From positions 170,001-234,000 of the forward strand of contig OX393573.1 of the NCBI GenBank assembly GCA_947652115.1: DNA of 64,000 nt, read 5' to 3'. Below the pieces are notes generated by a model, which worked only from the letters and a program-made list of their open reading frames with translations, did not search any database and was not told the DNA's origin. Origin of the DNA: Blastomussa wellsi (lineage: Eukaryota; Cnidaria; Anthozoa; Scleractinia; Plerogyridae). The translations under genes and the position numbers were made by a program. Below, in pieces: positions 32,089 through 44,911 of the stretch. The first letter of the stretch is position 1. Every line of letters begins with the position of its first letter.

Positions 32089-32094
32089 CTTCCC
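32089..32094 (+). repeat. Target-site duplication, left copy (CTTCCC)
   Basis: CTTCCC lies directly before the first base of the left terminal repeat (AGTAGTATAGG) and again directly after the last base of the right one, at 44906-44911. A 6-bp duplication is the known insertion signature of Polintons/Mavericks. Confidence 0.93.
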
Positions 32095-32325
32095 AGTAGT
32101 ATAGGTGGCTTAATGGGTCCGTAACCAATCACAGAGCAGCATACAGCACACGTGACGCGTCTCGACCAATCAGAAAGCGTCTCACAAAATTACCCATGAG
32201 ACGAACTTTTTTAGCGGTCGTAGTTCCAAGATGGCGGCGCCCATGAGTGGAAAACGTGGAGCGCAGAGGTCCTGACTGTAAAGATGACGTCATGGCTTTC
32301 CGGTCCCCCGCTCCTGAAGGGAGCG
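32095..32325 (+). repeat. Left terminal inverted repeat (231 bp)
   Basis: It begins AGTAGTATAGGTGGCTTAAT and ends near CTGAAGGGAGCG. It is colinear with the reverse complement of 44437-44905 but lacks two internal blocks, one after GAGTGGAAAAC and one after GGTCCTGACTGT, totalling about 240 bp. Confidence 0.93.
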
Positions 32326-32332
32326 TATTATT

Positions 32333-32421
32333 TTCCAGTCCTTTCGCTAGATGGGGCACTCCTCGGGGATTGGTTACCCGCGACTCGTGTTGGGATCCCT
32401 GACCTAGCGAAAAGACCGGAA
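32333..32421. repeat. Inverted repeat beside the polymerase 3' end
   Basis: TTCCAGTCCTTTCGCTAG at 32335 and CTAGCGAAAAGACCGGAA near 32404 pair with two mismatches across a loop of about 50 bp. It lies between the terminal repeat and the polymerase stop codon and could be a transcript-end structure, or part of an older, longer terminal repeat. Confidence 0.45.
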
Positions 32422-32500
32422 AAGGGTATCATCGGGGTGCCACCCCGACTCGTTGTCACCGGAACTATTTACAAATTGAACGCAACGATATTTACAATAT

Positions 32501-32720
32501 TTACAAATTGCAAAGGAGCTCGGCCATCTCCACGTCATGCTCGTCCAAGTCGTGCTTGTAGCCGTACGGGTAGGACGTGAAGGTTTCAAAGTCGACCACC
32601 CTCTTGTCGAAGACTAGACCGTACTGTTTGGTTCGTGGGGATACTTTCAGGCGTTTCGTGGCAGGATCCCGTGTGAAAAAGTGGGGGTTGGTCACCTCCA
32701 CGTCTCTGCGATCACCTTGG
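32501..32720 (-). pseudogene. Polinton DNA polymerase B, C-terminal fragment
   Basis: On the - strand the frame from about 32720 to its stop at 32501 carries TKQYGLVFDKRVVD and SYPYGY, the typical extreme C-terminus of Polinton type B polymerases. Upstream of 32720 the same strand is antisense to copied capsid sequence, so the open frame that continues to 32827 is spurious. The rest of the polymerase begins again at 33104. Confidence 0.85.
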
Positions 32721-32900
32721 GGATTGAGCAGCATTTCCGTACCCGATGCCGAAGTGACCATTCCGTCCGTGACCGACGATCCGGAGACCATCCTCTTAAT
32801 GTACAAGTGGGTCAGAGACAACGACAATAAACCTTATCAGGGCAACCGATTCACCGTCGGGACCAGCAAAGTGAATCTCCACGACTTGAACAACGCGTTC
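32721..32900 (+). pseudogene. Captured copy of part of the penton-2 gene
   Basis: Nearly identical to 36770-36949 (starting GATTGAGCAGCATTTCC), with a handful of substitutions. It is + strand sense inside a - strand polymerase gene. It breaks off in AACAACG and joins the ATPase-derived block. Confidence 0.92.
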
Positions 32901-33103
32901 CAAACTATTGACGGAAAACGCCGACTTGTTCGGGACGTCTCCCCAGGTCGTACGATACTGTTACGGCGCGTGGCAGGACATGCAAATTCCAGGACATGCA
33001 GCGAAGAGGCATCAAATTCGACGGTGCTTGGTGCTTCAAGCGTTTCCGAATAAGTGGAAAGACGTGCACGACAGGTACAGACGAGTGACGGACAAGCCTT
33101 TGG
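32899..33103 (+). pseudogene. Captured, internally deleted copy of the ATPase gene
   Basis: Two blocks are copied from the ATPase gene. The first (32899-33018) matches 40208-40325 and has a 4-bp TGCA insertion. The second (33027-33103) matches 40587-40663. The 260 bp between them in the source gene are missing. It ends in GACAAGCCTTTGG, where the polymerase sequence resumes in the opposite sense. Confidence 0.92.
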
Positions 33104-33852
33104 ACGCAGATGACTTTGCGTGTGTCCCCGTATTCGTCAATCGTCAACCCATCCAGGTATTCCATCAAGTCCTCGGTGCATGACGTACCGTAGAAGGAGA
33201 GCGTGTCGTCTTCGTCTTCCGGCTCTGCACACACGAGGATGGGTGTCTGAACACCGTCGGTGTCGGTGACGGCTTCGTAGTCCGCGTACACGAAGAGGGG
33301 TCTCGGTTTTTCCACCCACGCTTGACCGTCCTCGTCCATCTTCACGATACCGCCAGTACCCACTTCGGCCAAGGGTATTTTCATCAATTTGGGCTCGTCT
33401 TTTTCTGGATCGATGGGCTGGATGTAGCATTTGTGGGATGCCAGCTCCACCTCTTTTTCGCAGAAACGGCACCTGTCCCACCCGCACTTGTGTTTGTATC
33501 GCTTTCTGCTTTTCTTTTCTTTGGAGGCTTTTCTGTGTCTCGGGACGAAGGGTTCCTCTAATTCGCGGTGATAATAATCACATAACGTAGACTGACCTGG
33601 CTCTTGTGGCTTTTCGTCCACTTTCTTGGCCATCTCGCGTTTCCGTTTGGCATCTCGTTTTAACCTGTAGTTGGCAGAACGTCTTTCGTTGTCGCTTACA
33701 CCCGTTCTGATCGGAGAACCGAGTCCTTCTTCGTAGTAGATGGACGGCGTGTTGGCAATGCGTCTCAATTCTTCTACTTCTTCGTCAGTCATGAGGGCCA
33801 TGTTGGTCATCGCGCAAAAGTCTTTTCTTAAATACCTCTCGCTCTGCTGCAT
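33104..33852 (-). pseudogene. Polinton DNA polymerase B, N-terminal and exonuclease fragment
   Basis: On the - strand from an ATG at 33852 the frame encodes a Lys/Arg-rich region, a zinc-ribbon-like cluster (CGWDRCRFCEKEV...HKCYI) and the ExoI motif FVYADYEAV. It ends at about residue 250 (DEYGDTRKV), where it meets captured ATPase sequence; the residues that follow in the open frame are antisense ATPase. A TATA box lies about 35 bp upstream of the ATG. The whole polymerase active site is missing. It belongs to a different lineage from the polymerase at 14931-18037. Confidence 0.88.
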
Positions 33853-33884
33853 CTGCGTCTTCTGACGACCTTGCAGGTCCCTCT

Positions 33885-33896
33885 CTTTTATATAGC
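33885..33896 (-). promoter_or_regulatory. TATA box of the polymerase gene
   Basis: GCTATATAAAAGAGAGGG on the - strand ends about 35 bp before the ATG at 33852. Together with the TATA box on the other strand at 34085 it forms a divergent promoter region of about 200 bp, with CCAAT-like sequences near 33945 and 33968. Confidence 0.65.
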
Positions 33897-34084
33897 ATTT
33901 TGGCGGATCGAAAATCCAGTGTTCCCATTGGTTCTTTTTGGGTCATCCAATCAGAACGCTCGAAAACGAACCAATTGCGACGAAGGGCAAAGGTCAGTAC
34001 TTTTCCATCATCTCCTTTGCCCGGGCTTGCCCGCCGCCACGTAGGACCTTGACGGTGATTGGTGGATTTCGATCCGTCGCTAAG

Positions 34085-34094
34085 GTATATAAAG
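34085..34094 (+). promoter_or_regulatory. TATA box for the rightward gene block
   Basis: GTATATAAAGCGATC faces right, toward the integrase and capsid block. The region before it contains GATTGG (reverse CCAAT). It is the only clear TATA box before 43541 on the + strand, so it may drive the whole integrase-to-protease block. Confidence 0.6.
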
Positions 34095-34333
34095 CGATCT
34101 GAAGGTGGAGGACACCTACGATTACAAACGACTGTGCGACAGACTCGCCCGACTGTTGTACGCGGAAAGAGAGACGAGCGAATTCTGGTTCGCCAAGCCA
34201 GAGACATGAACTTGTACGATAAGGAATTAAGAGAATTTAGATCGTGTTGTAACGACGTAGGGTGTTGCTACATCAAGGGTGCCTTTTTTGTGAATAAAAG
34301 TTCATTTTTTACCCTGTTGTCTTCATTCGAGTC
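34095..34333 (+). other. Leader region with a short orphan open frame
   Basis: Between the TATA box and the first credible ATG is a short frame reading VEDTYDYKRLCDRLARLLYA that stops at 34208 and has no ATG. Another frame reads MNLYDKELREFRSCCNDVGC from 34206. An AATAAA is at 34291-34296. This could be the remnant of a small gene with a lost start; I do not recognise it. Confidence 0.35.
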
Positions 34334-34618
34334 ATGAATAGCGAAGCGTACTGGTGTTGGGTGAAAGACGTGTGTCTACGCGTCTATCTCAAATACGGGC
34401 AAGGGATCACGGTTCCCTTAGATCCTGATCCCGTCCACGATCCCTTGCAAGTTTTCGACGAGGCCGACGTACGAAACAAACCCTTTCGTTTCGCCGTCTA
34501 CATAATGTGATTGAGGTACCAACCCCACGCATTCGATCGGTTCAATTGTCTGTTGACGCAACGCGACGATCTGGTACGGGATTGCACGGTACGACTGACC
34601 ACCATTCTGGCGACATGA
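34334..34618 (+). pseudogene. Unknown small protein interrupted by an in-frame TGA
   Basis: A frame of 95 codons from the ATG at 34334 (MNSEAYWCWVKDVCLRVYL) to a TGA at 34618, broken only by one TGA at 34508-34510. The part after the break (RYQPHAFDRFNCLLTQRDD) looks equally protein-like. The final TGA overlaps the integrase ATG as ATGA. No domain is recognised. It is either a nonsense-mutated gene or a readthrough gene; the general decay of the element favours mutation. Confidence 0.55.
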
Positions 34619-35674
34619 AACGAGCATTGCAGAACTACGTCGATCCTTCCAAACCTGGCAGTTTGGGAGGCGTGCATCGGTTTGCCAGAGCCCACCGACT
34701 CGACCCGAATCAAGTCAAGAAACTCTTGGAAACGGAACTCGCGTACACGTTACACAAACCCAGAAGGAGACGTTACCCCACCTTACCCGTGTTGGTGTTC
34801 GGCATCGACGAGCAATGGGTGGCCGACCTGATCGAGGTGCAAAACATCGCGAGAGAAAACAAAGGGTACGGGTACCTGCTGACGGTCGTGGACGCTCTTT
34901 CCAAGTACGCGTGGGTGGAACCGGTCAAAAACAAGACGGGGAAAGCCGTGACGGAAGCCTTCGCCAAGATCTTGAAGCGAGCCAAAGGTAGAAAACCGAT
35001 CAATTTACAGACGGACGACGGTAAAGAATTTTACAACAAGACCTTTGCAGAGTTCACGAAACGTCGAGGCATCCATCACTTTTCCACGGCCGGAGACACC
35101 AAAGCCAGCATCGTCGAGAGGTTCAACCGCACCCTGAAGGGACGCATGTACAGGTACTTCACTGCCGCGAACACGACGAATTACACCAAAGTGCTGCCCG
35201 CCTTGGTGAAAGGGTACAACGTCTCGTTTCACCGAAGCATCGGCATGGCACCCGCCAAAGTGAACTCGGCCAACCAAGAAGCCGTGTGGAACGTGCTGTA
35301 CGCCAAGAGCTCGAAAGGGAAAAAGAAGACGTCGCCGCAGCGAATTCAAAGCGGGCGACAAGGTACGTCTCAACACGAAATTTCGTCCTTTTCAGAAAGG
35401 TTACTTGCCCGGATGGACGGAGGAGGTGTTCGTGGTGCGCCGAGTGAAGCCGGGACCTCCTCTGACCACTTACGAGTTGGACGAATACGACGGCACTCCT
35501 CTGAAAGGCACGTTTTACAAGCAGGATTTGCAAAAAGTGTCCGTGGGAGACGACGACCTGTGCAGGGTGGAAAAGATTCTGAAACGAAAAGGTACAAAAG
35601 TCCTGGTGCGATGGAAAGGATGGCCCATCAAATACGATAGCTGGATCGACAAAAAAGCTCTGGTGACACCATGA
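34615..35674 (+). pseudogene. Polinton integrase (retroviral-type DDE) with chromodomain, frameshifted
   Basis: Integrase that joins the element ends to host DNA, giving 6-bp duplications. From the ATG at 34615 (MKRALQNYVDPSKPG) it has a catalytic core with the three acidic residues in WVADLIEV, QTDDGKEF and KASIVERFNRTLK, followed by NVSFHRSIGMAPAKV. The frame shifts by one base near 35335. The continuation carries an SH3-like segment (AGDKVRLNTKF, PGWTEEVFVV) and, at about 35560-35660, a chromodomain (VEKILKRKGTK, VRWKGWP..YDSWI). Chromodomains read methylated histone tails and can steer integration. An ATG for another frame at 34507 gives a longer open frame, but its first 36 codons overlap the preceding small gene. 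The stop overlaps the next ATG as ATGA. Confidence 0.92.
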
Positions 35675-36648
35675 AAGACTTTTACGTCAAGTTGACGAGC
35701 GGTTCGAATCGGTTCGAATTTCCGGACAACCGAGCCAACCGTTTCAAGAACAGACTCCCGTACCTGATGCAGTTCAAGGAACCCGGTTGGAAAGTGGGCA
35801 TGACGGACATTCACGTGCCCAAAGCGCCCCGTCGAGTGGACTTGAAAGATCCCTTCTTGTTCCGTTTCGAGTGGCACTTGAAGTACGGCGACGGAACTTA
35901 CGCCGGTGCGGACGACACGACGTTGGAGATCACGCGCGACGTTCTGGAACGGCTGCACCCCAACATCGCCAGCAGTACCCAACTCCTGCAAGCCGTGCGA
36001 CGTCTCTACTACAAGACGTTGCAAGACGTGGACGTGGTGGACGCCGACCTGGGGCGAGACGGTGTTCGACCGAGACGAATTCGTCTTGGACAACCGCGAG
36101 ACGTTCACGGGGGACGCCCAGCGTTACCCGGCCGTGTTCGTGGGATTTCGATTGGCCCGAGACATGGGATGGATCGAGGTGACGGGTCCGCCCGATGCTC
36201 CCGTTCTCCCTATGTTCTGGGTGACAATTTACGCAAAGACTTTCCCGACGACACCGTGCCCGGTGCCACAGACATCGTGGAAGGCAACGACGAATTTTAC
36301 AAAGTGGACAACGATGCCCTCCAGTTGAGCTGTTTCTGCAATTGGGTGTTTTCGTACATGGACGAAAGTTACGAAAGAGCCTTCGGGTCCAATCGACGCC
36401 AACTGTTCGTGCACTCCAGCGTGGTGGAAAGCATCCCCGTGGGCGTACGCATGACGAATCTCTTGGGGGACATTCCGTACTCCTTGGAACGACGCGGCTA
36501 CGAGATGCAACACGTTCGATATATGCCCGTACGCGGAGAACTATTGGACATTATCGAGATCGTGGTGAAGGAGGAGGAAGACGACACCGACGTTCACTTC
36601 GAAACCGGGAACACCGTGGTGACGTTACATTTCAAGTATGCCTGGTGA
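35671..36648 (+). pseudogene. Minor capsid protein (penton-like), first paralogue, two frameshifts
   Basis: Predicted single-jelly-roll vertex (penton) protein. It begins MKDFYVKLTSGSNRFEFPDN with FKNRLPYLMQF and GWKVGMTDIHVPK, and ends RYMPVRGELLDIIEIVVKE...TLHFKYAW, the standard pattern of Polinton minor capsid proteins. Two frame changes, near 36048 and near 36216, bracket a segment whose natural reading (LARDMGWIEVTG and neighbours) is in another frame. The outer frame stays open throughout, which hides the damage. It is paralogous to the next gene. Confidence 0.85.
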
Positions 36649-37672
36649 AGAGTTTTACCTCACGTTACCCAGCGACAGCAGTCGTCGCGAATATCCCGAC
36701 AACGCGAACAATCACTTCAAGGTGCGACTACCCAACCCCATTCGTTTGGAAGGACAAGGTTGGAAAGTGGGATTGAGCAGCATTTCCTTACCCGATGCCG
36801 AAGTGACCATTCCGTCCGTGACCGACGATCCCGAGACCATCCTCTTCATGTACAAGTGGGTCAGAGACAACGACAATAAACCTTATCAGGGCAACCGATT
36901 TACCGTCGGGACAAGCAAAGTGAATCTCCACGACTTGAACAACGTGTTTTCTACGATGAACGGTGTGGAATTCATGAAAAGCGTGGTGAATTTCTACGAT
37001 CAGAAAAAATTCACAGCCTACGGTGGTCCAAAGCTGGGTAGCAAATATACCAGTCCGATAGACAATAAACGCTCGTACATACAGTTCAAGTGGGAAGGAG
37101 ACGAATTGGTCATGGACAACAAAGACATCACCCGAAAAGGAGAACCTCCTGCATTCCAGATCAACAAACACCTGGCCGCAAAGATGGGGTGGTTGTCTGA
37201 AGATGAAAGTAAGTTGGGACCAAATCTCCTCATGGAATTTGAGTCAGACACCATCCCCAATATCAGCATCAATTATGCCGACGTGACAAGTTTTGCGGGA
37301 AATCCTACATTGTCGGATAGTAGTGGAGAGTTTCTCAATTTCAGCTATTACTGCAACTGGCGATTCATCAACTTGAACAAAGCATTTGGACACGTGTTGG
37401 GGACCACGACGTCACGATCTCTGTTCGTGTACTCGGACGTGGCCCAGAGTTCGGTGGTGGGCGATCAAGTCACCGATCTGTTGCGAGAAGTCAACTACGT
37501 GAGAAAAGGACAAGGCAGCGCTTACTTCGAACCGCTCCACGTACAATATATTCCGGTGCGCAAGGACACGTTGGACATTATCGAAACGCAAGTGTCCGAG
37601 ACGAACGGACCCTTGACCACATTCGGTGTTGAAGGCAGGACCATCTTGACGTTGCATTTCAAGCGAGAATGA
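36638..37672 (+). CDS. Minor capsid protein (penton-like), second paralogue, intact
   Basis: 344 residues with no visible damage. The start MPGEEFYLTLPSDSSRREYP, then NHFKVRLPNPI and GWKVGLSSISLPDAE, parallels the first paralogue, as do FNFSYYCNWRF-type and LFVYSDVAQSSVVGD segments and the ending EPLHVQYIPVRKDTLDIIE...ILTLHFKRE. Expected role: pentameric capsomer at the icosahedral vertices. The ATG lies 11 nt inside the end of the first paralogue, and its TGA overlaps the next ATG as ATGA. A 180-bp piece is copied into the polymerase remnant at 32721. Confidence 0.9.
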   Translation: MPGEEFYLTLPSDSSRREYPDNANNHFKVRLPNPIRLEGQGWKVGLSSISLPDAEVTIPSVTDDPETILFMYKWVRDNDNKPYQGNRFTVGTSKVNLHDLNNVFSTMNGVEFMKSVVNFYDQKKFTAYGGPKLGSKYTSPIDNKRSYIQFKWEGDELVMDNKDITRKGEPPAFQINKHLAAKMGWLSEDESKLGPNLLMEFESDTIPNISINYADVTSFAGNPTLSDSSGEFLNFSYYCNWRFINLNKAFGHVLGTTTSRSLFVYSDVAQSSVVGDQVTDLLREVNYVRKGQGSAYFEPLHVQYIPVRKDTLDIIETQVSETNGPLTTFGVEGRTILTLHFKRE

Positions 37673-37917
37673 GAGGAAGTTGTTTGACGCGCTACGTACC
37701 CGACCAAGACGGCACAGGTTTCTTCAAAGACATCCTTTCCTCCACCGCCCGAGAAGGTTGGCGAGGTTTAAAAAGGGGTCCGTTGGGTCTACTCGTCAAC
37801 ATTTGCGCTGCCGTGGCCGGAGCCAAGAGAGGAGCGAAACGCACGGTGAAACGTACGATAGAAAGAGAAGCCAGCAAGAGACTCAAGAGAGGCCTCAACG
37901 ATCTGTTTGGTTCGTGA
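37669..37917 (+). CDS. Small basic protein with central hydrophobic segment (pX-like)
   Basis: 82 residues: MRGSCLTRYVPDQDGTGFF, then LKRGPLGLLVNICAAVAGAK (a short hydrophobic stretch beside a Gly/Lys pair) and a Lys/Arg-rich tail. This pattern resembles the small adenovirus core or membrane-active peptides (pX/pVI type) that are encoded between penton and hexon genes in Polintons; the assignment rests on position and composition. It overlaps the previous stop as ATGA, and its own stop overlaps the next ATG as TGATG. Confidence 0.7.
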   Translation: MRGSCLTRYVPDQDGTGFFKDILSSTAREGWRGLKRGPLGLLVNICAAVAGAKRGAKRTVKRTIEREASKRLKRGLNDLFGS

Positions 37918-38117
37918 TGATGAATCCCATCTATTCCAGACGCGTGAAACGGATAAGGAAAATAAGTCAACGAGGTGGGACCCTTTGGTCCGGCGTCGCC
38001 ACCGCCGCCGTTCGATTACCTTGGACCGACTTGGTGAAACGACTGCAGCGACAGTATCCTATAAAAAAGCGAGGTCAACGCGGAGGTACGTTCATTCCCA
38101 GTCGTCAAACGAAAACG
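37917..38117 (+). CDS. Small basic protein with QRGG motifs, fused in frame to the capsid gene
   Basis: From the ATG at 37917 (MMNPIYSRRVKRIRKISQ) the frame encodes about 67 residues rich in Arg/Lys, with QRGGTLWSG and GQRGGTFIP. No stop separates it from the major capsid start at 38118, where the sequence reads ACGATGACA; every other boundary nearby has a separate stop. Either the two are one precursor cut by the viral protease, or a stop has been lost through an indel. Confidence 0.55.
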
Positions 38118-39511
38118 ATGACATATCTCGTGCCTCTGACCGGATCGGCGGGCGTGTCCAATCCGAAATTGGATCTGTTTCGCGTCCCACCCACCGATGT
38201 CAGCATCTCCAGTTTTCGCATGGTGCCCATCCAGACCTTTACCACAGGGATCAACCTCGTGGACTTCAGGTCGATCAGCAAGAAGATTACATCGATTTGA
38301 GTCGCAGTTTCTTCGAAGTGGAATTGAGGTTGAAGAAAGCGGCGGACGGTACCAATTACGCAGCGGCAAACAACGTGATTCCCGTCAACAACTTGGCGCA
38401 CACCTTTTTCAAACAGATCAACGTCAAACTCAACGGAACCTTGATCAGTCCTCAGACCGACACGTACCATTACAAGGCCTACCTCGAAACGTTGCTGAAC
38501 CACGACAGAGACGACGGCGACACCATCTTGAAACCTCAAGGCTGGTACAATGGCATCGACTGTCCCGACACGTTGACGGCGAATAACCTGGACGATGCCG
38601 CGCCTCACGCCGACTTCGAAGCTCTGACTACCACTCAACAAGAAACCGTGAAAGCCCTGAAAGCCGAAAGAGCCAAGTACCTGGGAGGTGCCGTGCACGT
38701 GTTGCGCTTCACGCCCCACATCGAAGTGTTTCACATGGACAAGGTCTTGGTGCCAGGCGTGCAACTCCAGATCCAGATGTACTTCAACAACCCAGATCTG
38801 TTCACCGTGGGTGTCGCATGGCAAGCTGCGGCTCCACTCACCATCCAAGACGTCAAAGTCAGACTGTACCTCTGTACACTGAGACTCAATCCCTCCGTGT
38901 ACTTGGAATTGGAAAAAAAACAGAGAACGACCCGGAAAACCGTCAGCTACACCACCGTGAGAGGCGAAATCAGGACCTACAACATGGAAGGCAACCAACA
39001 ACGCTTCGAGATCAACAACCTGTTTCAAGGACGCATCCCCAATCGCTTGGTGGTGGGTATGGTGTCGACGGAGGCTTTCACCGGCACGTTGGTCACCAAC
39101 CCCTTCAATTTCCAGAAATTCGGTTTGAGCAGCATTCGTCAATTGGTGAGAGGAGAAGAGTACCCGTACGAGACGTTGGAACTGGTGCACGACGACGACA
39201 GCAAGGATCTGAGAGGATACTTCAGGTTCCTGCAAGCCACGGGGTGTCTGTGCCGAAAGAAAGGAAACATGGTGAGGAGCGAGGAATGGGGACAAGGCAG
39301 GAACAGCACGCTGTTCGTATTTGACAACGCGGCCAACGGATGTTTGGACAGTCCCGTGTTGAATCCCAAACAGAGCGGAGAGGTGCAGCTGGTCCTGAAT
39401 TTCGGTGCCAATCCAGGAGTCAACATCACCGTCGTGGTGTACGGCGAATTCGAAAACTTGTTAGAAGTCGACGCCAACAAAGTCGTCCTGTACAACGTGT
39501 ACGAACGCTGA
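38118..39511 (+). pseudogene. Major capsid protein (double jelly-roll, hexon-like), one frameshift
   Basis: Main shell protein of the predicted particle. It starts MTYLVPLTGSAGVSN with LDLFRVPPTD. After a single-base frame change near 38265 it continues as QVDQQEDYIDLSRSFFEVEL, NNLAHTFFKQINVKLNG, HTYHYKAYLETLL-type (YHYKAYLETLLNHDR) and ends ANPGVNITVVVYGEFEN...VVLYNVYER. This order is diagnostic of Polinton major capsid proteins. Length is about 464 residues if the shift is ignored. Its TGA is followed by ATT where the protease begins. Confidence 0.93.
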
Positions 39512-40083
39512 TTGAACGCGTGGCCCTGAACAACGTGCAGTTGGACCATTTTGCAGAAGCAGACCCCGTGTTGAAACCGCATTTTCACGGGACCGTGGCG
39601 TGCGACGAATTACCGTCGACCCCTCGCAAAGACGTGCCTCGGGGTTACATCGTCAACACGGATCCGCCCGACTTACCGGGTCGCCATTGGATCTCCCTGT
39701 GGACCGAAGGCAACGTGTGCGAGGTGATGGACAGTTACGCGTTACCTCTGGAGGCGTACCAGACCGCGGGACCGTTGCAAGCGTGGTTAAAGAAACATTG
39801 GAAGTACGTGATCCGAAACGGACAGAGTTTACAGTCGCTGTTCAGCAAGAGTTGCGGCGATTACGCCCTGTTGTATTTGAGTTCGAAAGCCAGAAACGAA
39901 AGCATGCAATACTTTGTAAATCGATTCTCCAAACACGATTACGCGGCCAACGACCACAAAGTAGGCCAGATGTTACGAGAAAAAATAGTAAGAGCTTTAG
40001 GATGGCAAGACGTTTGTAAACGACCTCACGTTCAGAACACCGTGCGATCGCACGGCGGTGTAAATCATTTGTTTTTCAAATAA
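39511..40083 (+). pseudogene. Adenain-like cysteine protease, start codon lost
   Basis: Maturation protease of the adenovirus/Ulp1 type. Catalytic elements are visible: GRHWISLWT (His), VMDSYALPL (Asp) and a C-terminal SKSCGDYALLYL (Cys with the preceding Ser-Lys). The frame is open for 190 residues to TAA at 40083. No ATG is present at the natural start: the capsid stop reads TGATT, whereas elsewhere in this element the pattern is TGATG. A single substitution therefore probably removed the start. An AATAAA at 40079-40084 overlaps the stop codon. Confidence 0.88.
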
Positions 40084-40084
40084 A
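40079..40084 (+). terminator. Poly(A) signal overlapping the protease stop
   Basis: AATAAA shares bases with the TAA stop at 40081-40083. The same overlap occurs at the phospholipase gene (43374-43379). It suggests that a transcript block ends here. Confidence 0.6.
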
Positions 40085-40120
40085 GAGGTGTGAAAACGAA
40101 CCTGTAGTCACTCTGTACCC

Positions 40121-40807
40121 ATGGATCGAGGAGACGCGTTCACCTTCAACTGTCCGTGCAGCATCTTGATCGTGGGACCGTCGGGCTGCGGTAAGACGGT
40201 CTTCACTTCCAAACTCTTGACGGAAAACGCCGACTTGTTCGGGACGTCTCCCCAGGTCGTACGATACTGTTACGGCGCGTGGCAGGACAAATTCCAGGAC
40301 ATGCAGCGAAGAGGCATCAAATTCCACGAAGGCATTCCAGACACGAACGATTTGAAAAAGTGGTTTCCCAAAGGAGGTGTACTGGTGATGGACGATTTGA
40401 TGGACGAAGGAGGCAGCGACAAACGCGTGCTCGATCTATTCACTAAACACTCTCATCATCAAAACATCACGGTGTTGTACTTGTGTCAAGACATGTTCCC
40501 GCCCTGCAAGTACGCCAAGAGCATTTCCAGAAACGCGCATTGCGTAATAGCGTTCAAGAACCCTCGCGACCAATTGGGATTTCGAAACTTGGTGCTTCAA
40601 GCGTTTCCGAATAAGTGGAAAGACGTGCACGACAGGTACAGACGAGTGACGGACAAGCCTTTGGGTTACATGGTCTTGGACCTGCATCCTGCCAGCAGCG
40701 ACGATCGACGACTCCTCAGCCACTTGTTAAAAGACGAGGGATACGTGCGATGTTATGAGTTCGAAGTAGAAAAAGACACTCCCATCCGCGACCTAGACTA
40801 TCTGTGA
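40121..40807 (+). CDS. Packaging ATPase (FtsK/HerA type, A32-like), intact
   Basis: 228 residues, MDRGDAFTFNCPCSILIVG onward. Walker A is GPSGCGKT near residue 19, Walker B is VLVMDDLMDE near residue 87, and LCQDMFP and FKNPRDQLGFRNL follow. This is the short A32-type genome-packaging ATPase of Polintons and related viruses, which pumps DNA into the preformed shell. No frameshift is seen. Its stop overlaps the next ATG as TGATG. Two pieces are copied into the polymerase remnant. Confidence 0.94.
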   Translation: MDRGDAFTFNCPCSILIVGPSGCGKTVFTSKLLTENADLFGTSPQVVRYCYGAWQDKFQDMQRRGIKFHEGIPDTNDLKKWFPKGGVLVMDDLMDEGGSDKRVLDLFTKHSHHQNITVLYLCQDMFPPCKYAKSISRNAHCVIAFKNPRDQLGFRNLVLQAFPNKWKDVHDRYRRVTDKPLGYMVLDLHPASSDDRRLLSHLLKDEGYVRCYEFEVEKDTPIRDLDYL

Positions 40808-41010
40808 TGCAGCTACGCGACGTGTCGTCGTGCAGGTTCCTGCACCGATGGATGCGACACTTGAGCCAGATGAGGCCCGACGACATGGATCGCGACGCCA
40901 TGACACGATTGGTGACGACGTTTAAGACGTGGGAGGACGTGGACGATCTGGTACGAGCATATAACGAGACTCACTTCAGAAAATTGATTCAATCGTTACG
41001 CGATTGCTGA
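40807..41010 (+). CDS. Unknown 67-residue protein
   Basis: MQLRDVSSCRFLHRWMRHL ... ETHFRKLIQSLRDC, probably helical. The start is coupled to the ATPase stop (TGATG). No domain is recognised. Its position between the ATPase and the two-membrane-segment protein is the only clue. Confidence 0.65.
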   Translation: MQLRDVSSCRFLHRWMRHLSQMRPDDMDRDAMTRLVTTFKTWEDVDDLVRAYNETHFRKLIQSLRDC

Positions 41011-41014
41011 GGAA

Positions 41015-42118
41015 GTGTTACCTTCGGTGGGCGTGGGCAGATCTCCCAACGCACCGTCGATGGGAGACCTCATTCACATGGCGTTAACCATGTCGCCTTT
41101 GAGCCCTCATCCCATCGACACCCTCGATTTGGATCGTTTGGATCCGTCTGCAGTGGATCGTCAACAGTTGCAAGCCATGGACGACATACGAGACCAAGAC
41201 ATCATGGCTGCCTTGAGTCCCGCACACGTGGACCAGATGATGCAAAACACCTACGGCACGCCTGGCGTAGGTTCTCCACCCACACCCGTCTTCTCGACTC
41301 CTTCTCCGGCAGGTGTAGGTACACAACCCGCGAGACCCACGGTCCCACACAAGAGCCCTCGTAGGCGTCTTCCCTCGAGAAGCAGTAGCAGCAGCAGCAG
41401 CAGTACACGTAGAAGACCGACGAGAATGAATCAAGACGACTTGCAGCGACAATTGCAACTGTTGTTAAACGATCAAAGTAAATCGGCAGCTGGACGACGC
41501 ATTGCCGGCATCACGACCACCAACACCATCACAACGACCTACAAAGACGGAGGCAGACCGAGCGTGCGACGCACTTCTACGCGAGTGAGCGATATAGATG
41601 GAACGACAGGTCTCACTCTTGAACGGGACCCACGCCAAGTGCCCCTTAGACCGCAAATTATTGTACAAGTTGGACGGACTCTTTTCCATCGTCAATGGTG
41701 GTGTCATCGTCAGATGTTTTACCATTTCAAACGGTGTCACGGTTGTTTGAACGCGTTGGCTTTAATCGTAGTGGCAGCAGGAATCGTCGTGGGTTCCGTG
41801 TTGGAAAACAGTATCCTGATCGCTTGTTTGTCGGCGGCAGGTACCGTGGTCAAGGGATGGATCGATTTCAAAAAGTTTTCGTTCAAAGTCGACATGTGTC
41901 ATTTTGCCTACACCACCTACGACAAGACGTTAATCGAATTGAGAACCTGCGCACGAGGTCTTCCCATGGACGAGTTGGACGGATTCTTGATCAAGATGCA
42001 AACCTTGGACGACACCATCACCGATTTCACCCCGCCCGTGTCCGACAAGTGCATGGGAGACTACGAAAAAACATTTCGTTACGATCACGTGGATAAAGGC
42101 GAGAGTACGACGGTGTGA
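41015..42118 (+). CDS. Polinton protein with two membrane segments
   Basis: The frame opens at a GTG (41015), and its first ATG is at 41060 (MGDLIHMALTMSPLSP). The N-terminal half is Pro/Ser/Arg-rich, with an eight-serine run near 41385-41410. After WWCHRQMFYHFKRCHGC come two hydrophobic helices (LNALALIVVAAGIVVGS and ILIACLSAAGTVVKGW), then a conserved-looking helical tail (FKKFSFKVDMCHFAYTTYDK). A Trp-His basic stretch before a two-helix hairpin resembles SLATT-like 2TM proteins and membrane proteins I associate with other Polintons; this is a pattern judgement only. Expected location is a membrane. No break is evident. Confidence 0.65.
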   Translation: MLPSVGVGRSPNAPSMGDLIHMALTMSPLSPHPIDTLDLDRLDPSAVDRQQLQAMDDIRDQDIMAALSPAHVDQMMQNTYGTPGVGSPPTPVFSTPSPAGVGTQPARPTVPHKSPRRRLPSRSSSSSSSSTRRRPTRMNQDDLQRQLQLLLNDQSKSAAGRRIAGITTTNTITTTYKDGGRPSVRRTSTRVSDIDGTTGLTLERDPRQVPLRPQIIVQVGRTLFHRQWWCHRQMFYHFKRCHGCLNALALIVVAAGIVVGSVLENSILIACLSAAGTVVKGWIDFKKFSFKVDMCHFAYTTYDKTLIELRTCARGLPMDELDGFLIKMQTLDDTITDFTPPVSDKCMGDYEKTFRYDHVDKGESTTV

Positions 42119-42133
42119 GAATCAGTTTCGGCA

Positions 42134-42418
42134 ATGAAGGGGAGACGAACAGGTCGTGGTAGAAGAACAACGCGAAAGAGACAAAAAGGAGGACTCTTTC
42201 CCCTGGCGGCACTCATTCCAGCTTTGGTGGCCGGAGGAAAGGCCATAGCAACGGGTGCTCTGTCCGGAGCTGCAGGGTACGGTGCGAAAAAAGGATTGGA
42301 AGCGTTAGAAAGAAGAAGAAAAAGAAAACGAAAAGCCCCATCACGGTCACAATTGAGTTCTGGAGCCAAGAAACAGGCCAAAGTCATCTCGCGCATCGTA
42401 AAAGGCTCTGCGGGATGA
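42134..42418 (+). CDS. Small basic protein with KGG site and hydrophobic core (pX/pVII-like)
   Basis: 94 residues. A basic N-terminus (MKGRRTGRGRRTTRKRQKGG) is followed by a hydrophobic, Ala/Gly-rich segment (FPLAALIPALVAGGKAIATG) and a Lys/Arg-rich tail. The layout is that of adenovirus-type core precursors, in which a basic leader is cut at a Gly-Gly site. Its stop overlaps the next ATG as ATGA. Confidence 0.65.
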   Translation: MKGRRTGRGRRTTRKRQKGGLFPLAALIPALVAGGKAIATGALSGAAGYGAKKGLEALERRRKRKRKAPSRSQLSSGAKKQAKVISRIVKGSAG

Positions 42419-43065
42419 AAAGGAGGCCTAAGACACGACACAGAAGACGACAACGAGGCGGTGCACTACAAAGGCAAGTTGACACAGAGCGCACTATTGA
42501 ACAAGGCGGCTCGATTGTCTGCCGAGAAACAGTTGTTGGAGAAACACTTACCTCCGGGTCTGGCCGTGAAGAAAACCAAACCGATTGCAAGGAAGTGGGT
42601 AAACTCGGCCGACGCATCCGACGAGGACCCGTGACCGTTCGCAGTGCACCCGACGATGACGACGACGACGACGTACTCTTAAACGCCCCTTTGGAAAACA
42701 TGCTGAAACAAATCGTCAAAGCCAACAAGGCGACAGCTGCAGCGGCAGCAACAGCAGCAACGCCCGCCGTCGTCGTTAAAAAGGAATCCTCGACGCAATC
42801 CAAATCAGTTCCACGCAAGAAAACGATCAAACGACAACCTGCCACACCGTCCACGTCACACGCAGACCAAGGACCAAAATCGACTTTAAAAGAAAAACTG
42901 ACAGGTCTGTTCAAGAGGAAGAGAAAGACAGAAGCCGAGCGATTGAAACCGGCACCCGAGTGGGAAGATTGGCACAAAGGCAAGAAACCTAGACGTCCGT
43001 TAGAGCCCGAGTATGACGAAACCGACGAAGAAGAGTCGTACGAGGAAGAGGAAGACGACGACTAG
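42415..43065 (+). pseudogene. Basic/acidic virion-type protein, probably frame-disturbed
   Basis: The open frame starts MKRRPKTRHRRRQRGG and ends in a long acidic tail (YDETDEEESYEEEEDDD), with an Ala-rich middle. Between about 42455 and 42640 a different frame reads more like protein (LTQSALLNKAARLSAEKQL, KTKPIARKWVN) and stops at 42630. Two compensating indels are therefore likely. The function is unknown; composition and position suggest a DNA-binding core or tail protein. Confidence 0.5.
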
Positions 43066-43375
43066 TGGATGGGGATTCGACATCCAGAAATTACTGGCAA
43101 AAACCGGCATGGAATTTCATTGGCCCGGATATCAGTTCATGGGACCTGGCACTCATTTGAAAAAGAGACTAAAACGAGGCGACAAGGGCATCAATCGTCT
43201 GGATCGGATTGCAAGAACCCACGACATCGATTATTCTCGTGCCAAGAACCTACAAGACAAGTGGGTAGCGGACGCTAAGATGATAAGGGCGATCAACAAG
43301 TTACCCGGCAAGAAAACCATGACAGAACGCATCGTAAGACGTATCATGCAAGCCAAGAAAAAACTAAAGTTGTAA
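43064..43375 (+). CDS. Phospholipase A2-motif protein (parvovirus VP1-like)
   Basis: The frame reads GWGFDIQKLLAKTGMEFHWP, then YQFMGPGTHL (Ca-binding-loop-like Gly-Pro-Gly), then NRLDRIARTHDIDYSRA with the His-Asp-x-x-Tyr catalytic motif of PLA2 enzymes. It ends with a Lys-rich tail. In parvovirus VP1 and some adintoviruses such a domain breaches the endosomal membrane during entry. No ATG fits well: the in-frame ATG at 43013 lies inside the acidic tail of the previous gene, and the next is at 43108. The start may be lost or reached by splicing or frameshift. The stop overlaps AATAAA. Confidence 0.75.
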   Translation, partial: SGWGFDIQKLLAKTGMEFHWPGYQFMGPGTHLKKRLKRGDKGINRLDRIARTHDIDYSRAKNLQDKWVADAKMIRAINKLPGKKTMTERIVRRIMQAKKKLKL

Positions 43376-43379
43376 TAAA
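43374..43379 (+). terminator. Poly(A) signal overlapping the PLA2-gene stop
   Basis: TGTAATAAAG: the TAA stop at 43373-43375 shares two bases with AATAAA. It marks the likely end of the ATPase-to-PLA2 block. A GT-rich stretch follows (ACAATTGTTGTAG). Confidence 0.6.
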
Positions 43380-43540
43380 GTATTTTATTGACAATTGTTG
43401 TAGTTCGAAAAATATTTACATCGTTTGCAATTAAAAAAATGTTCTTCAACAAGTGAGTTCCTTATATAGTGTGTTGAACCTCTCATAGGGGGATACCCCC
43501 CATCCGCCATACCCTTGGTATCACGTGACCTGTTTTGATT

Positions 43541-43550
43541 TTATATAAGG
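43541..43550 (+). promoter_or_regulatory. TATA box before the right-end genes
   Basis: TTTTATATAAGGCATTCG lies about 65 bp upstream of the ATG at 43611, preceded by TATCACGTGACC (an E-box-like palindrome) at 43519. The region between the previous poly(A) signal and this box is non-coding. Confidence 0.7.
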
Positions 43551-43610
43551 CATTCGCTTCCATCCCACACCACCATTTACCCTTTGAAGCTGAGTTGATT
43601 AAAAGTAAGT

Positions 43611-43868
43611 ATGGCATTTGAAAAAGAACTTTTGTGGGAAACGTATAATGAAGCGACGACGTTAATGGAGTTGAAGTTGGACGCTAACAAGGAGAATTGT
43701 CAAGGTGACCGCTACCAAGACATGTTTGATTTGATTCAAGATGGAGCAGTCTTGCTTGACAGGATAAGTCGCTTGTCATGGGACGCAGGCGTGGATGACC
43801 CTGAAGTGCTCTCTCTGTGGAACGACTTGCTTGTGTGGGCAGAGGCATTCGATGCGTTGGACCCTTGA
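43611..43868 (+). CDS. Orphan acidic 85-residue protein at the right end
   Basis: MAFEKELLWETYNEATTLM ... VLSLWNDLLVWAEAFDALD. It is acidic and predicted all-helical. It has its own TATA box. GTAAGTATGG around the start also matches a splice donor (AAG/GTAAGT at 43604), so a spliced form is possible. No family is recognised. Right-end genes of such elements are often lineage-specific accessory genes. Confidence 0.6.
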   Translation: MAFEKELLWETYNEATTLMELKLDANKENCQGDRYQDMFDLIQDGAVLLDRISRLSWDAGVDDPEVLSLWNDLLVWAEAFDALDP

Positions 43869-43919
43869 TGGAACATTTTATTGTGTCACCATTTTGATTT
43901 TTGTTTTCTTTTGTCAGTC

Positions 43920-44210
43920 ATGTCTTGTAGAAATTTACCATCCTGCTGTGTGGTCTGTGACAAGGAACCTCCCACGTGTACACAACCTCTTCACAGAATG
44001 CACAATGCTCATCATGAGAAGTTCGTGAAAGAAATCAAATGGGGCGAGATAACAGCGAAGTGGGGTGGTCGCGTTTTCTTGACTTGTTGCGGTTCCATTT
44101 ACGGAGAGTATTATGACAGAGAGGAGTGGAACTTTACAACCGTGTTTTTAGGTGAGAATCTTGATGCAGCACTCGCTCGTATAAAATTTGTGAAGACTTT
44201 TATTTTGTAA
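43920..44210 (+). CDS. Orphan Cys-rich 96-residue protein at the right end
   Basis: MSCRNLPSCCVVCDKEPPTC with clustered Cys and His (HRMHNAHHEKF), then KWGEITAKWGGRVFLTCCGS. Zinc binding is plausible from CxxC-type spacing, but no known fold is recognised. It ends at 44210 inside the first of two direct repeats. Intact as far as can be seen. Confidence 0.55.
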   Translation: MSCRNLPSCCVVCDKEPPTCTQPLHRMHNAHHEKFVKEIKWGEITAKWGGRVFLTCCGSIYGEYYDREEWNFTTVFLGENLDAALARIKFVKTFIL

Positions 44211-44312
44211 ACGTTTGTAGAATCATTGTCACGTTTGCAAAAAACATCTGTGATTTGTTGATGTAGCACACGCTCGTATAAAATTCGTGAAGACTTTTAT
44301 TTTGCAAGCGAT
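44162..44312 (+). repeat. Two direct 49-bp repeats
   Basis: GATGCAGCACTCGCTCGTAT and about 29 further bases at 44162-44210 recur at 44262-44311 with four changes. The first copy encodes the last residues of the Cys-rich protein. Each contains GTATAAAA. ACGTTTGTAGA-type segments recur between and after them. Confidence 0.8.
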
Positions 44313-44436
44313 TGTCACGTTTTGAAAATTTGTAAACGTTAGAAATGAATGGATGTATAATAGGAGAATTGTAATTAAAACAATTTTACACGTTTGAAAA
44401 AATCTCTGTGTGATTTTATTCTACGTATGTAGCACT

Positions 44437-44905
44437 CGCTCCCTTAAGGAGTGGGGGACCGGAAAGCCATTACGTCATCTCGTTGCTGATTGGTTCCGCC
44501 GTATCGAGGCCGTGACGTCATCTCGTCGCTGATTGGTTCGTTCCACCTCGAGGCTGTCTCTACCCATATAATGCCGCGCTCAGCAACATTCTTCCTTTTT
44601 ACAACATGGCCCCTTCACAGTCAGGACCTCTGCGCTCCACGCGTCTACGCCGTGACGTCATCCCATTATCGATTTTTATCGATTACGGCTCGCCCTGGAA
44701 ATCCGTGAGACGGGTCCAGATCCTCTGTCGAGGGCTGGGGCGCAGTTTTCCACTCATGGGCGCCGCCATCTTGGAACTACGACCGCTTAAAAAGTTCGTC
44801 TCATGGGTAATTTTCTGAGACGCTTTCTGGTTGGTCGAGACGCGTCACGTGTGCTGTATGCTGCTCTGTGATTGGTTACGGACCCATTAAGCCACCTATA
44901 CTACT
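44437..44905 (-). repeat. Right terminal inverted repeat (469 bp)
   Basis: Read on the - strand it begins AGTAGTATAGGTGGCTTAAT and ends near AAGGGAGCG at 44437. It is the fuller of the two arms: it keeps about 240 bp missing from the left arm, including a second GATGACGTCA-type block and AACCAATCAGCGACGAG repeats. Confidence 0.93.
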
Positions 44906-44911
44906 CTTCCC
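44906..44911 (+). repeat. Target-site duplication, right copy (CTTCCC)
   Basis: Identical to 32089-32094. The flank continues AGGAAATTTCTGTACCATTC, which resembles TTTCTGTACC and AATTTCCGG segments left of the element, so the provirus sits in an older repeat. Confidence 0.93.

What the first reader, a model, noticed from the sequence alone, without database searches (positions are those of the whole stretch)
34615..42418. Cascade of ATGA and TGATG stop/start overlaps across a eukaryotic virus-like element
Exact ATGA overlaps occur at 34615, 35671, 37669 and 42415, and TGATG at 37917 and 40807. A degraded TGATT is at 39511, and an 11-nt overlap is at 36638. Such junctions are typical of coupled termination-reinitiation in polycistronic mRNA, which is rare in animals. 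With one TATA box at 34085 and poly(A) signals at 40079 and 43374, two long polycistronic messages would fit. I do not know a description of this for Polintons.
Basis: partly seen in the sequence, partly recalled or inferred. Interest (0 to 1): 0.88.

Follow-up and report, generated by a model that had tools for sequence, protein, structure and literature searches.

The report
Tightly chained genes in animal Polintons
A decayed virus-like element in an animal genome, and its relatives there, carry many genes whose stop and start signals touch or overlap, as if one long message were read gene after gene, which animal cells rarely do.

Summary
The window holds a 12.8-kb Polinton/Maverick (32095-44905): terminal repeats, 6-bp duplication, integrase, capsid gene, ATPase, PLA2; polymerase only as remnants. 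The ATGA/TGATG junctions exist as stated; one more was missed (38118). The host genome has 151 ATPase matches. In three groups of relatives (ATPase about 70-96% identical) the same junctions stay within a few bases yet switch form: ATGA, TGATG, TAATG, or 8- to 11-nt overlap. MCP/protease is -1 nt in 40 of 42 counted copies, whereas protease|ATPase runs from 37 to 185 nt. Minus strands and host flanks give 0 of 48 spacings of -4 or -1. So closeness is kept by selection within units. The proposed TATA at 34085 sits at a breakpoint and is absent from the two relatives that reach there. Promoter-like pairs precede ORF1 and the ATPase, and the capsid gene in two groups. AATAAA ends the units but also occurs elsewhere. 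No TURBS motif, splice-acceptor excess or silent-site conservation was seen. Best model: polycistronic units read by coupled termination-reinitiation. There is no RNA evidence; nested transcripts are the main rival.

The parts
32095..44905 (.). Whole Polinton/Maverick copy, 12,811 bp, decayed, polymerase gene reduced to remnants
   Evidence: TIRs and 6-bp target-site duplication; gene content (capsid fold from a homologue)
32095..32255 (+). Left terminal inverted repeat (161 nt, 98% complementary to 44745-44905)
44745..44905 (-). Right terminal inverted repeat
32089..32094 (.). Target-site duplication CTTCCC (second copy 44906-44911)
32534..33537 (-). PolB remnant pieces (32534-32710 and 33103-33537), broken
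   Evidence: tblastn to a PolB frame of the same genome, 51% and 30% identity; the 315-aa ORF 32905-33852 has 21 homologues, part of them with PF03175
34086..34092 (+).
34293..34325 (+). AATAAA (in relatives apparently the end of an upstream gene) and TATA-like/Inr pair, predicted start about 34325
   Evidence: p about 0.012
34334..34618 (+). ORF1 (93-95 aa in relatives), in-frame stop here
34615..35674 (+). Integrase with chromodomain, frame change about 35.3 kb; starts in ATGA with ORF1
   Evidence: PF00665 5e-14; PF00385 7e-5, just under its cut-off
35671..36648 (+). g3, paralogue of g4, two frame changes; starts in ATGA
36638..37672 (+). g4 (344 aa), 11-nt overlap with g3 (AUG-n5-UGA)
37669..37917 (+). 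g5 (82 aa, basic), starts in ATGA
37917..38121 (+). g5b (small basic protein), starts in TGATG; reads into the capsid frame in this copy
38060..38094 (+). TATAAAA and Inr-like pair inside g5b, before the capsid gene
   Evidence: p 0.004 here, 0.001 in L039; not in group C (0.111)
38118..39511 (+). Major capsid gene, double jelly-roll; ATGA junction with g5b in relatives
   Evidence: fold of the L040 homologue
39511..40083 (+). Protease-like gene (PRO); start codon lost here, TGATG or TAATG in most relatives counted; its stop lies inside AATAAA
   Evidence: Peptidase_C5 6e-4 in L039, below cut-off
40079..40110 (+). Unit boundary: AATAAA, TATA-like/Inr pair, predicted start about 40110
40121..40807 (+). 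Packaging-type ATPase, first gene of unit 2
   Evidence: Pox_A32 3e-4, just under its cut-off; 934 homologues
40807..41010 (+). g9 (67 aa), starts in TGATG here; +9 or +25 nt in 27 of 30 group A copies
41010..41597 (+). g10 (approximate limits); 8-nt overlap with g9 in 27 of 30 group A copies, decayed here
41598..42118 (+). g11 (approximate limits), hydrophobic stretch, frame changed here
42134..42418 (+). g12 (94 aa, basic), 15 nt after g11; weak promoter-like pair upstream
42415..43065 (+). g13, starts in ATGA
43013..43375 (+). PLA2-like gene, overlaps the preceding ORF
   Evidence: PF08398 1.5e-10
43374..43379 (+). AATAAA at the end of unit 2

Best explanation
The window holds one decayed copy of a Polinton/Maverick family in which most plus-strand genes (integrase and virion genes) sit in tightly coupled strings. 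Shown: within a string each start codon overlaps or nearly touches the preceding stop at most junctions, and this closeness is kept while its exact form changes between groups of relatives. Inferred: each string is copied as an unspliced polycistronic RNA from a TATA/Inr-type promoter (before ORF1, before the ATPase, and an extra one inside g5b for the capsid gene in groups A and B), ending at the AATAAA behind the protease or the PLA2 gene. Inferred: the downstream genes are translated by coupled termination-reinitiation, the ribosome restarting at the start codon next to the stop it has just read. Because no cis signal is evident, a helper factor, as in caulimoviruses, is plausible but untested.
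For: Form switching at homologous junctions, counted in distinct copies with both codons intact: g4/g5 -4 in 7 and -1 in 5 (12 intact of 14); g5/g5b -4 in 8, -1 in 5, +2 in 2 (15 of 15; the two at +2 also have an ATG at -1); g5b/MCP -4 in 9 (9 of 13); MCP/PRO -1 in 40, +1 and +2 in one each (42 of 45); INT/next +2 in 4, -4 in 2 (6 of 7); g3/g4 -11 in 5 of 5; ORF1/INT -4 in 3, -11, -28 (5 of 6). g9/g10 is -8 in 27 of 30. The boundary PRO|ATP is 37-185 nt (31 intact of 44). Controls: 0 of 48 spacings of -4 or -1 on minus strands and host flanks, 1 of 48 between -14 and +5. Spacings fit the published set AUGA, UAAUG, AUG-nX-UGA. Internal starts have a purine at -3 in 20 of 23, first genes of units in 4 of 7 (no background computed). 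Leaky scanning would have to pass 67 (L039) or 43 (L040) AUGs to reach the capsid gene. Splice-acceptor-like tracts are not enriched at starts. TATA-Inr pairs mark ORF1 in the window and C (p about 0.012 and 0.022; B 0.039 with a poor Inr), ATP in the window, B and C (0.012-0.025) and MCP in A and B (0.004, 0.001), but not g3, g4, g5, g5b or PRO. PolB, a single gene on the other strand, has no coupled gene behind it in 4 loci read; its upstream side was not covered.
Against: No RNA data. The TURBS motif TGGGA is not enriched upstream of junctions (1 of 12, 3 of 11, 0 of 9). Four-fold sites near gene ends are no more conserved than elsewhere (27 of 64 against 245 of 592 over 12 gene pairs), so no cis element is evident, though power is low. 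ATP/g9 is +9 in 14 and +25 in 13 of 30 group A copies, so that junction is not held tight. MCP/PRO also occurs at +1 and +5 in two further copies read by eye. Serial reinitiation at the roughly 10% given for influenza B (PMC3035654, abstract start in a search listing) would starve late genes unless it is far more efficient or, as perhaps for the capsid gene, a promoter intervenes. The TATA/Inr letters before the capsid gene also encode conserved residues, so they could be coding coincidence. AATAAA also occurs inside units. A distant locus (L066, 37% capsid identity) has gaps of 28 and 11 nt round its capsid ORF, not overlaps.
Confidence: 0.5

Rival explanations
1. Genome compaction with nested transcripts: nearly every gene has its own transcription start inside the preceding gene, all RNAs of a unit share one poly(A) site, and ribosomes read only the first gene of each. 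The overlaps then only reflect pressure to save space.
For: A TATA/Inr pair lies inside g5b before the capsid gene in A and B; B has one before integrase (p 0.011), and the window and C have a weak one before g12 (0.026, 0.030). AATAAA at unit ends fits. It removes the stoichiometry problem.
Against: g3, g4, g5, g5b, PRO and g13 show no promoter-like pair above background, and gene ends show no extra conservation of silent sites. The elements are not wholly short of space: PRO|ATP varies from 37 to 185 nt.
Confidence: 0.32
2. Adenovirus-like alternative splicing: one long pre-mRNA is spliced so that each start codon becomes the first AUG after a common leader.
For: Adenoviruses, distant relatives with capsid, packaging and protease genes of similar type, do this (recalled).
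Against: Pyrimidine-AG acceptors within 60 nt of starts are not enriched in L039, L040 or the window (mean 0.58, 0.58, 0.45 against 0.59, 0.60, 0.59 background; 1 of 32 starts at 0.8 or more, background about 8%). The score is simple and would miss weak acceptors.
Confidence: 0.12
3. Spliced-leader trans-splicing cuts a polycistronic RNA into single-gene mRNAs, as in operons of some animals.
For: Would explain operon-like strings in an animal.
Against: No acceptor-like excess at starts. The only homologues with a species name among the 120 listed are from Oculina patagonica (67-71% ATPase identity), a stony coral (recalled); spliced leaders are not known to me from that group (recalled).
Confidence: 0.03
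4. Chance or annotation artefact: ATGA and TGATG are common words and the reader picked them.
For: As words they are not over-represented in the region.
Against: Placement at gene borders recurs in different groups of relatives, with 0 of 48 in controls.
Confidence: 0.02

Closest known systems
Polintons/Mavericks of animals (adintovirus-like proviruses)
   Same: TIRs, 6-bp TSD, rve integrase, double-jelly-roll capsid protein, packaging-type ATPase, protease-like gene; PolB in relatives of the same genome
   Different: The stop-start chaining is not mentioned in the passages found in PMC8097293, PMC11071296, PMC4028283 and PMC10812802 ('overlap' occurs 0 times in each); PMC10812802 does report adintovirus transcripts of penton and ATPase genes. 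This copy has only PolB remnants
Caulimoviridae (CaMV), TAV-activated polycistronic translation
   Same: DNA element copied into RNA with consecutive ORFs joined by 1-nt gaps or short overlaps and a looser spacer holding a TATA promoter; no cis element needed (PMC5902531, passages)
   Different: Plant pararetrovirus; later ORFs are thought to use a spliced RNA too. No TAV-like protein was sought here, and that review (2018) states that none is known outside the family
Calicivirus and influenza B termination-reinitiation
   Same: AUGA, UAAUG and short AUG-nX-UGA overlaps (PMC5972666, passages)
   Different: Two consecutive genes and a TURBS element; here up to 7 junctions in a row and no TURBS motif-1 enrichment
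SART1 retrotransposon ORF1/ORF2 coupling
   Same: Mobile element of an animal with overlapping stop-start and coupled translation (PMC5972666, passages)
   Different: Two genes only; a non-LTR retrotransposon
Prokaryotic -4/-1 gene pairs
   Same: Dominant spacings -4 and -1 (PMC10666635, abstract)
   Different: Bacterial and archaeal ribosomes, not a eukaryotic element

Membership tests
Polinton/Maverick | Terminal inverted repeats | tested here: met
   161 nt, 98%
Polinton/Maverick | 6-bp target-site duplication | tested here: met
   CTTCCC on both sides
Polinton/Maverick | Retrovirus-like (rve) integrase | tested here: met
   PF00665 5e-14 in the window, 6e-13 and 5e-16 in L039 and L040
Polinton/Maverick | Protein-primed family B polymerase | tested here: inconclusive
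   Remnants only in the window; open PolB frames of 1,323 aa on C16 and C12 lie about 13-14 kb from related ATPases
Polinton/Maverick | Double-jelly-roll major capsid protein | tested here: met
   Model of the L040 homologue (pLDDT 77) matches SGIV, PBCV-1, Sputnik and mavirus capsid proteins, E 6e-16 to 7e-12 in the 50 rows shown; Pfam hits weak (3 of 19 members, best 0.016)
Polinton/Maverick | FtsK/A32-type packaging ATPase | tested here: met
   Pox_A32 3e-4, just under its cut-off; part of the 120 listed homologues carry PF04665
Polinton/Maverick | Adenovirus-type cysteine protease | tested here: inconclusive
   Peptidase_C5 0.018 in the window, 6e-4 in L039, no hit in L040; all below cut-off
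Polinton/Maverick | Penton (single jelly-roll) protein | tested here: inconclusive
   g3/g4 lie upstream of the capsid gene, where a penton is expected (PMC4028283, passages); model too poor (pLDDT 56)
Coupled termination-reinitiation | Stop and next start overlap or lie within a few nt | tested here: met
   exception ATP/g9 in group A
Coupled termination-reinitiation | TURBS motif complementary to 18S rRNA upstream (caliciviruses, influenza B) | tested here: not met
   TGGGA, GGGA and TGGG not enriched
Coupled termination-reinitiation | Downstream output depends on upstream termination | not testable with these tools
   needs reporters
Caulimovirid-type polycistronic reinitiation | Trans-acting reinitiation factor (TAV) | not tested
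   No homologue search was made
Adenovirus-like late splicing | 3' splice acceptor just before each start | tested here: not met
   No enrichment by a simple pyrimidine-AG score

The most novel reading that the evidence does not exclude
A lineage of animal DNA viruses/transposons expresses some 15-18 genes from three or four promoters by serial termination-reinitiation across as many as seven junctions in a row, without a TURBS, probably with a self-encoded trans-acting factor: an animal counterpart of the caulimovirus strategy.
Probability: 0.2. Interest if true: 0.9.

Novelty: new variant of a known kind. Interest (0 to 1): 0.62.

Why it matters
How Polintons express their virion genes is, as far as I know, open. 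In the library searched four papers hold both 'polycistronic' and 'Polinton' (three listed) and one holds 'reinitiation' and 'Polinton'; by title and abstract start none of those listed treats this. A conserved operon-like layout in an animal DNA element makes a clear prediction (multi-gene unspliced RNAs, coupled translation) that long-read RNA from one host colony can test. If true it adds polycistronic translation to animal DNA viruses and gives a set of natural junctions for studying reinitiation after long genes.

Tried and rejected
Word counts of ATGA/TGATG: uninformative, not used as evidence. TATA at 34085 as promoter: rejected. TURBS motif-1, splice-acceptor and silent-site tests: negative. 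Relatives outside the genome: three viral-contig scans with ATPase, ATPase alignment and capsid alignment gave none; one genome-contig scan gave one distant locus, L066, in a contig labelled Candidatus Poribacteria MAG, with looser spacing; its neighbouring ORFs were not identified. The more diverged ATPase copies (56-66%): the one whose wider context was read (L087) has no chained neighbours, so it was no test; L041 (66%) is too decayed upstream. Structure of g4 too poor to use. A solved-structure search by sequence with the capsid alignment found nothing, and NCBIfam gave nothing useful. The TATA and Inr matrices and the TURBS and acceptor consensus are recalled, not fetched. The groups A, B and C are my labels from percent identity; no tree was built. 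The spacing null (uniform within 60 nt) is simple, and copies of one group are not independent events, which is why form switching between groups is the argument.
Full report
What it is. The region is one integrated Polinton/Maverick. Inverted repeats of 161 nt (98%) lie at 32095-32255 and 44745-44905, flanked by the 6-bp duplication CTTCCC. Plus-strand genes in order: ORF1, integrase with chromodomain, two paralogues (g3, g4), two small basic proteins (g5, g5b), major capsid protein, protease-like gene, ATPase, g9-g13, PLA2-like gene. The capsid identity rests on a model of the L040 homologue that matches double-jelly-roll capsids. The polymerase survives only as minus-strand pieces. The copy is decayed, with frame changes in several genes.

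Relatives. The host genome (367.8 Mb, 124 contigs, unnamed) gave 151 ATPase matches, window included and not all listed, 97 capsid matches for a group C query and 140 PolB matches, several of them pieces of one gene. By ATPase identity to the window I label three groups: A (about 91-96%, with the window), B (about 71-74%) and C (about 70-71%); other copies lie between or below, and no tree was built. I read four stretches of 9.8 kb, two short stretches round the capsid gene of each of ten copies, three upstream stretches, 20 stretches round the ATPase, one wider stretch, and 30 ATPase loci (one being the window).

Junction test. Spacing is the number of bases between stop and start; ATGA is -4, TGATG or TAATG is -1. 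Counts by distinct copy with both codons intact: ORF1/INT -4 in 3, -11 and -28 once each (5 of 6 copies); INT/next +2 in 4, -4 in 2 (6 of 7); g3/g4 -11 in 5 (5 of 5); g4/g5 -4 in 7, -1 in 5 (12 of 14); g5/g5b -4 in 8, -1 in 5, +2 in 2 (15 of 15); g5b/MCP -4 in 9 (9 of 13); MCP/PRO -1 in 40, +1 and +2 once each (42 of 45); PRO|ATP 37-185 (31 of 44). Copies in which either gene end could not be recognised at 40% of self-score, or that lay more than 400 nt apart, were not counted. Four further copies whose MCP/PRO stretch was too short for that count read -1, -1, +1 and +5 by eye. For ATP/g9 the same script recognised 38 copies but only 6 with both codons intact (-11 in 3, -1 in 3), because most group A ATPases end earlier; a second script on the 30 group A loci gave +9 in 14, +25 in 13 and -1 in 3, and g9/g10 at -8 in 27 of 30. 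g10/g11 reads stop, one base, ATG in 28 of 30. Later genes of unit 2 overlap by 22 and 44 nt in L039 and by 25, 41 and 14 nt in L040.

The same junction therefore differs between groups in form but not in closeness: g4/g5 is ATGA in A and C and TAATG in B; g5/g5b is TGATG in A, ATGA in B, and TAATG or ATGA in C-like copies; MCP/PRO is TGATG in A, TGATG or TAATG in B, TAATG in C. Protein conservation alone does not produce this. Many of the changes are multiples of three, so stop or start moved by codons; that path is easy, but values such as +5 to +30 are rare except at ATP/g9.

Controls. Mechanical ORF tiling gives spacings of exactly -4 or -1 in 6 of 13 (L039), 5 of 14 (L040) and 3 of 11 (window) on the plus strand, 0 of 22 on the minus strands of the same loci and 0 of 26 in host flanks; one of those 48 lies between -14 and +5. 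With junctions listed by hand the figures are 7 of 13 and 6 of 12, or 7 of 15 and 6 of 13 if the unclear ones count as misses.

Unit structure. AATAAA overlaps the stop of the protease (40079) and of the PLA2 gene (43374) in the window. In group A relatives an open frame upstream of ORF1 runs into the AATAAA corresponding to 34293. AATAAA occurs elsewhere on the plus strand too (36875 and 37064 in the window, 5987 in L039, several in L040), so these signals are not exclusive to unit ends. The proposed TATA lies left of about 34091, where the window stops matching the two relatives that reach that far. A TATA-Inr scan (recalled matrices; background from both strands of the coding regions) gives low p before ORF1 (window 0.012, C 0.022, B 0.039), ATPase (window 0.012, B 0.022, C 0.025) and capsid gene (A 0.004, B 0.001, C 0.111), with weaker hits before integrase in B (0.011) and g12 in window and C (0.026, 0.030). 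Of 45 starts scored, 11 reach p 0.03, with about 1.4 expected; the starts of related copies are not independent.

Mechanism. The spacings match the published list for coupled termination-reinitiation, AUGA, UAAUG and AUG-nX-UGA with X 2, 5, 8 or 14 (PMC5972666, passages). Leaky scanning from ORF1 would have to pass dozens of AUGs. No acceptor excess speaks against per-gene splicing. The absence of TURBS motif-1 enrichment and of silent-site conservation near gene ends gives no sign of a calicivirus-type cis element; the CaMV system, which needs none and relies on a viral factor, is the nearer analogue (PMC5902531, passages). Its layout is similar: 1-nt gaps, overlaps of 19 and 38 nt, and one spacer holding a TATA box. 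That the capsid gene, needed in bulk, may have its own promoter in A and B fits either a mixed scheme or the nested-transcript rival.

What is shown and what is inferred. Shown: element identity, the junctions, their kept closeness with changing form, the loose protease|ATPase boundary, and the negative cis-element tests. Inferred: the promoters, the polycistronic RNAs, and reinitiation. Scope: one genome. A distant locus (L066, from a contig filed under a Poribacteria MAG) has 28- and 11-nt gaps round its capsid ORF, so the tight pattern may be a feature of one lineage.

Literature. Searches for Polinton with overlapping/stop codon/start codon, with termination-reinitiation and Maverick, with polycistronic, with coral and cnidarian and with reinitiation listed no paper that, by title and abstract start, describes this. 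Seven papers were opened: passages of PMC8097293, PMC11071296, PMC5972666, PMC5902531, PMC4028283 and PMC10812802, and the abstract of PMC10666635; the rest were seen as listings only. Most subscription papers are not in the library.

Noticed in passing
L040:6166-6237; also L067 and L068: A tRNA-like sequence (Rfam tRNA, 32.9 bits, gathering 29; ARAGORN called none in L040) followed by a T-run fills the protease|ATPase gap in three group C copies; L041 keeps what looks like a T-arm. It might serve as processing site or boundary.
   Followed up: partly
window 32283-34091: The left end matches group A left ends only to about 32724; 32725-33200 found no other match among the candidates scored, and the arm carries diverged polymerase pieces, so the copy looks like a mosaic that lost most of PolB.
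   Followed up: partly
G000:C8:13832126-13842009 (L042): Another group A copy whose left end lies only about 6 kb from its ATPase, apparently too close for a whole PolB arm: perhaps a second polymerase-less copy with a different deletion.
   Followed up: no
L039 1724-3809 and window 35671-37672 (g3/g4): Two paralogous genes of about 340 aa lie in tandem before g5 in A and B, but only one in C.
   Followed up: partly
window 15353-17257: A 634-aa ORF with a weak Endonuclease VII match (PF02945, 4.5e-4, below cut-off) in the flank, possibly another mobile element.
   Followed up: no
G000:C12:259200-266200 (L087): ATPase relatives at 56-66% identity exist; the one whose wider context was read (62%) shows no recognisable chained neighbours.
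   Followed up: partly
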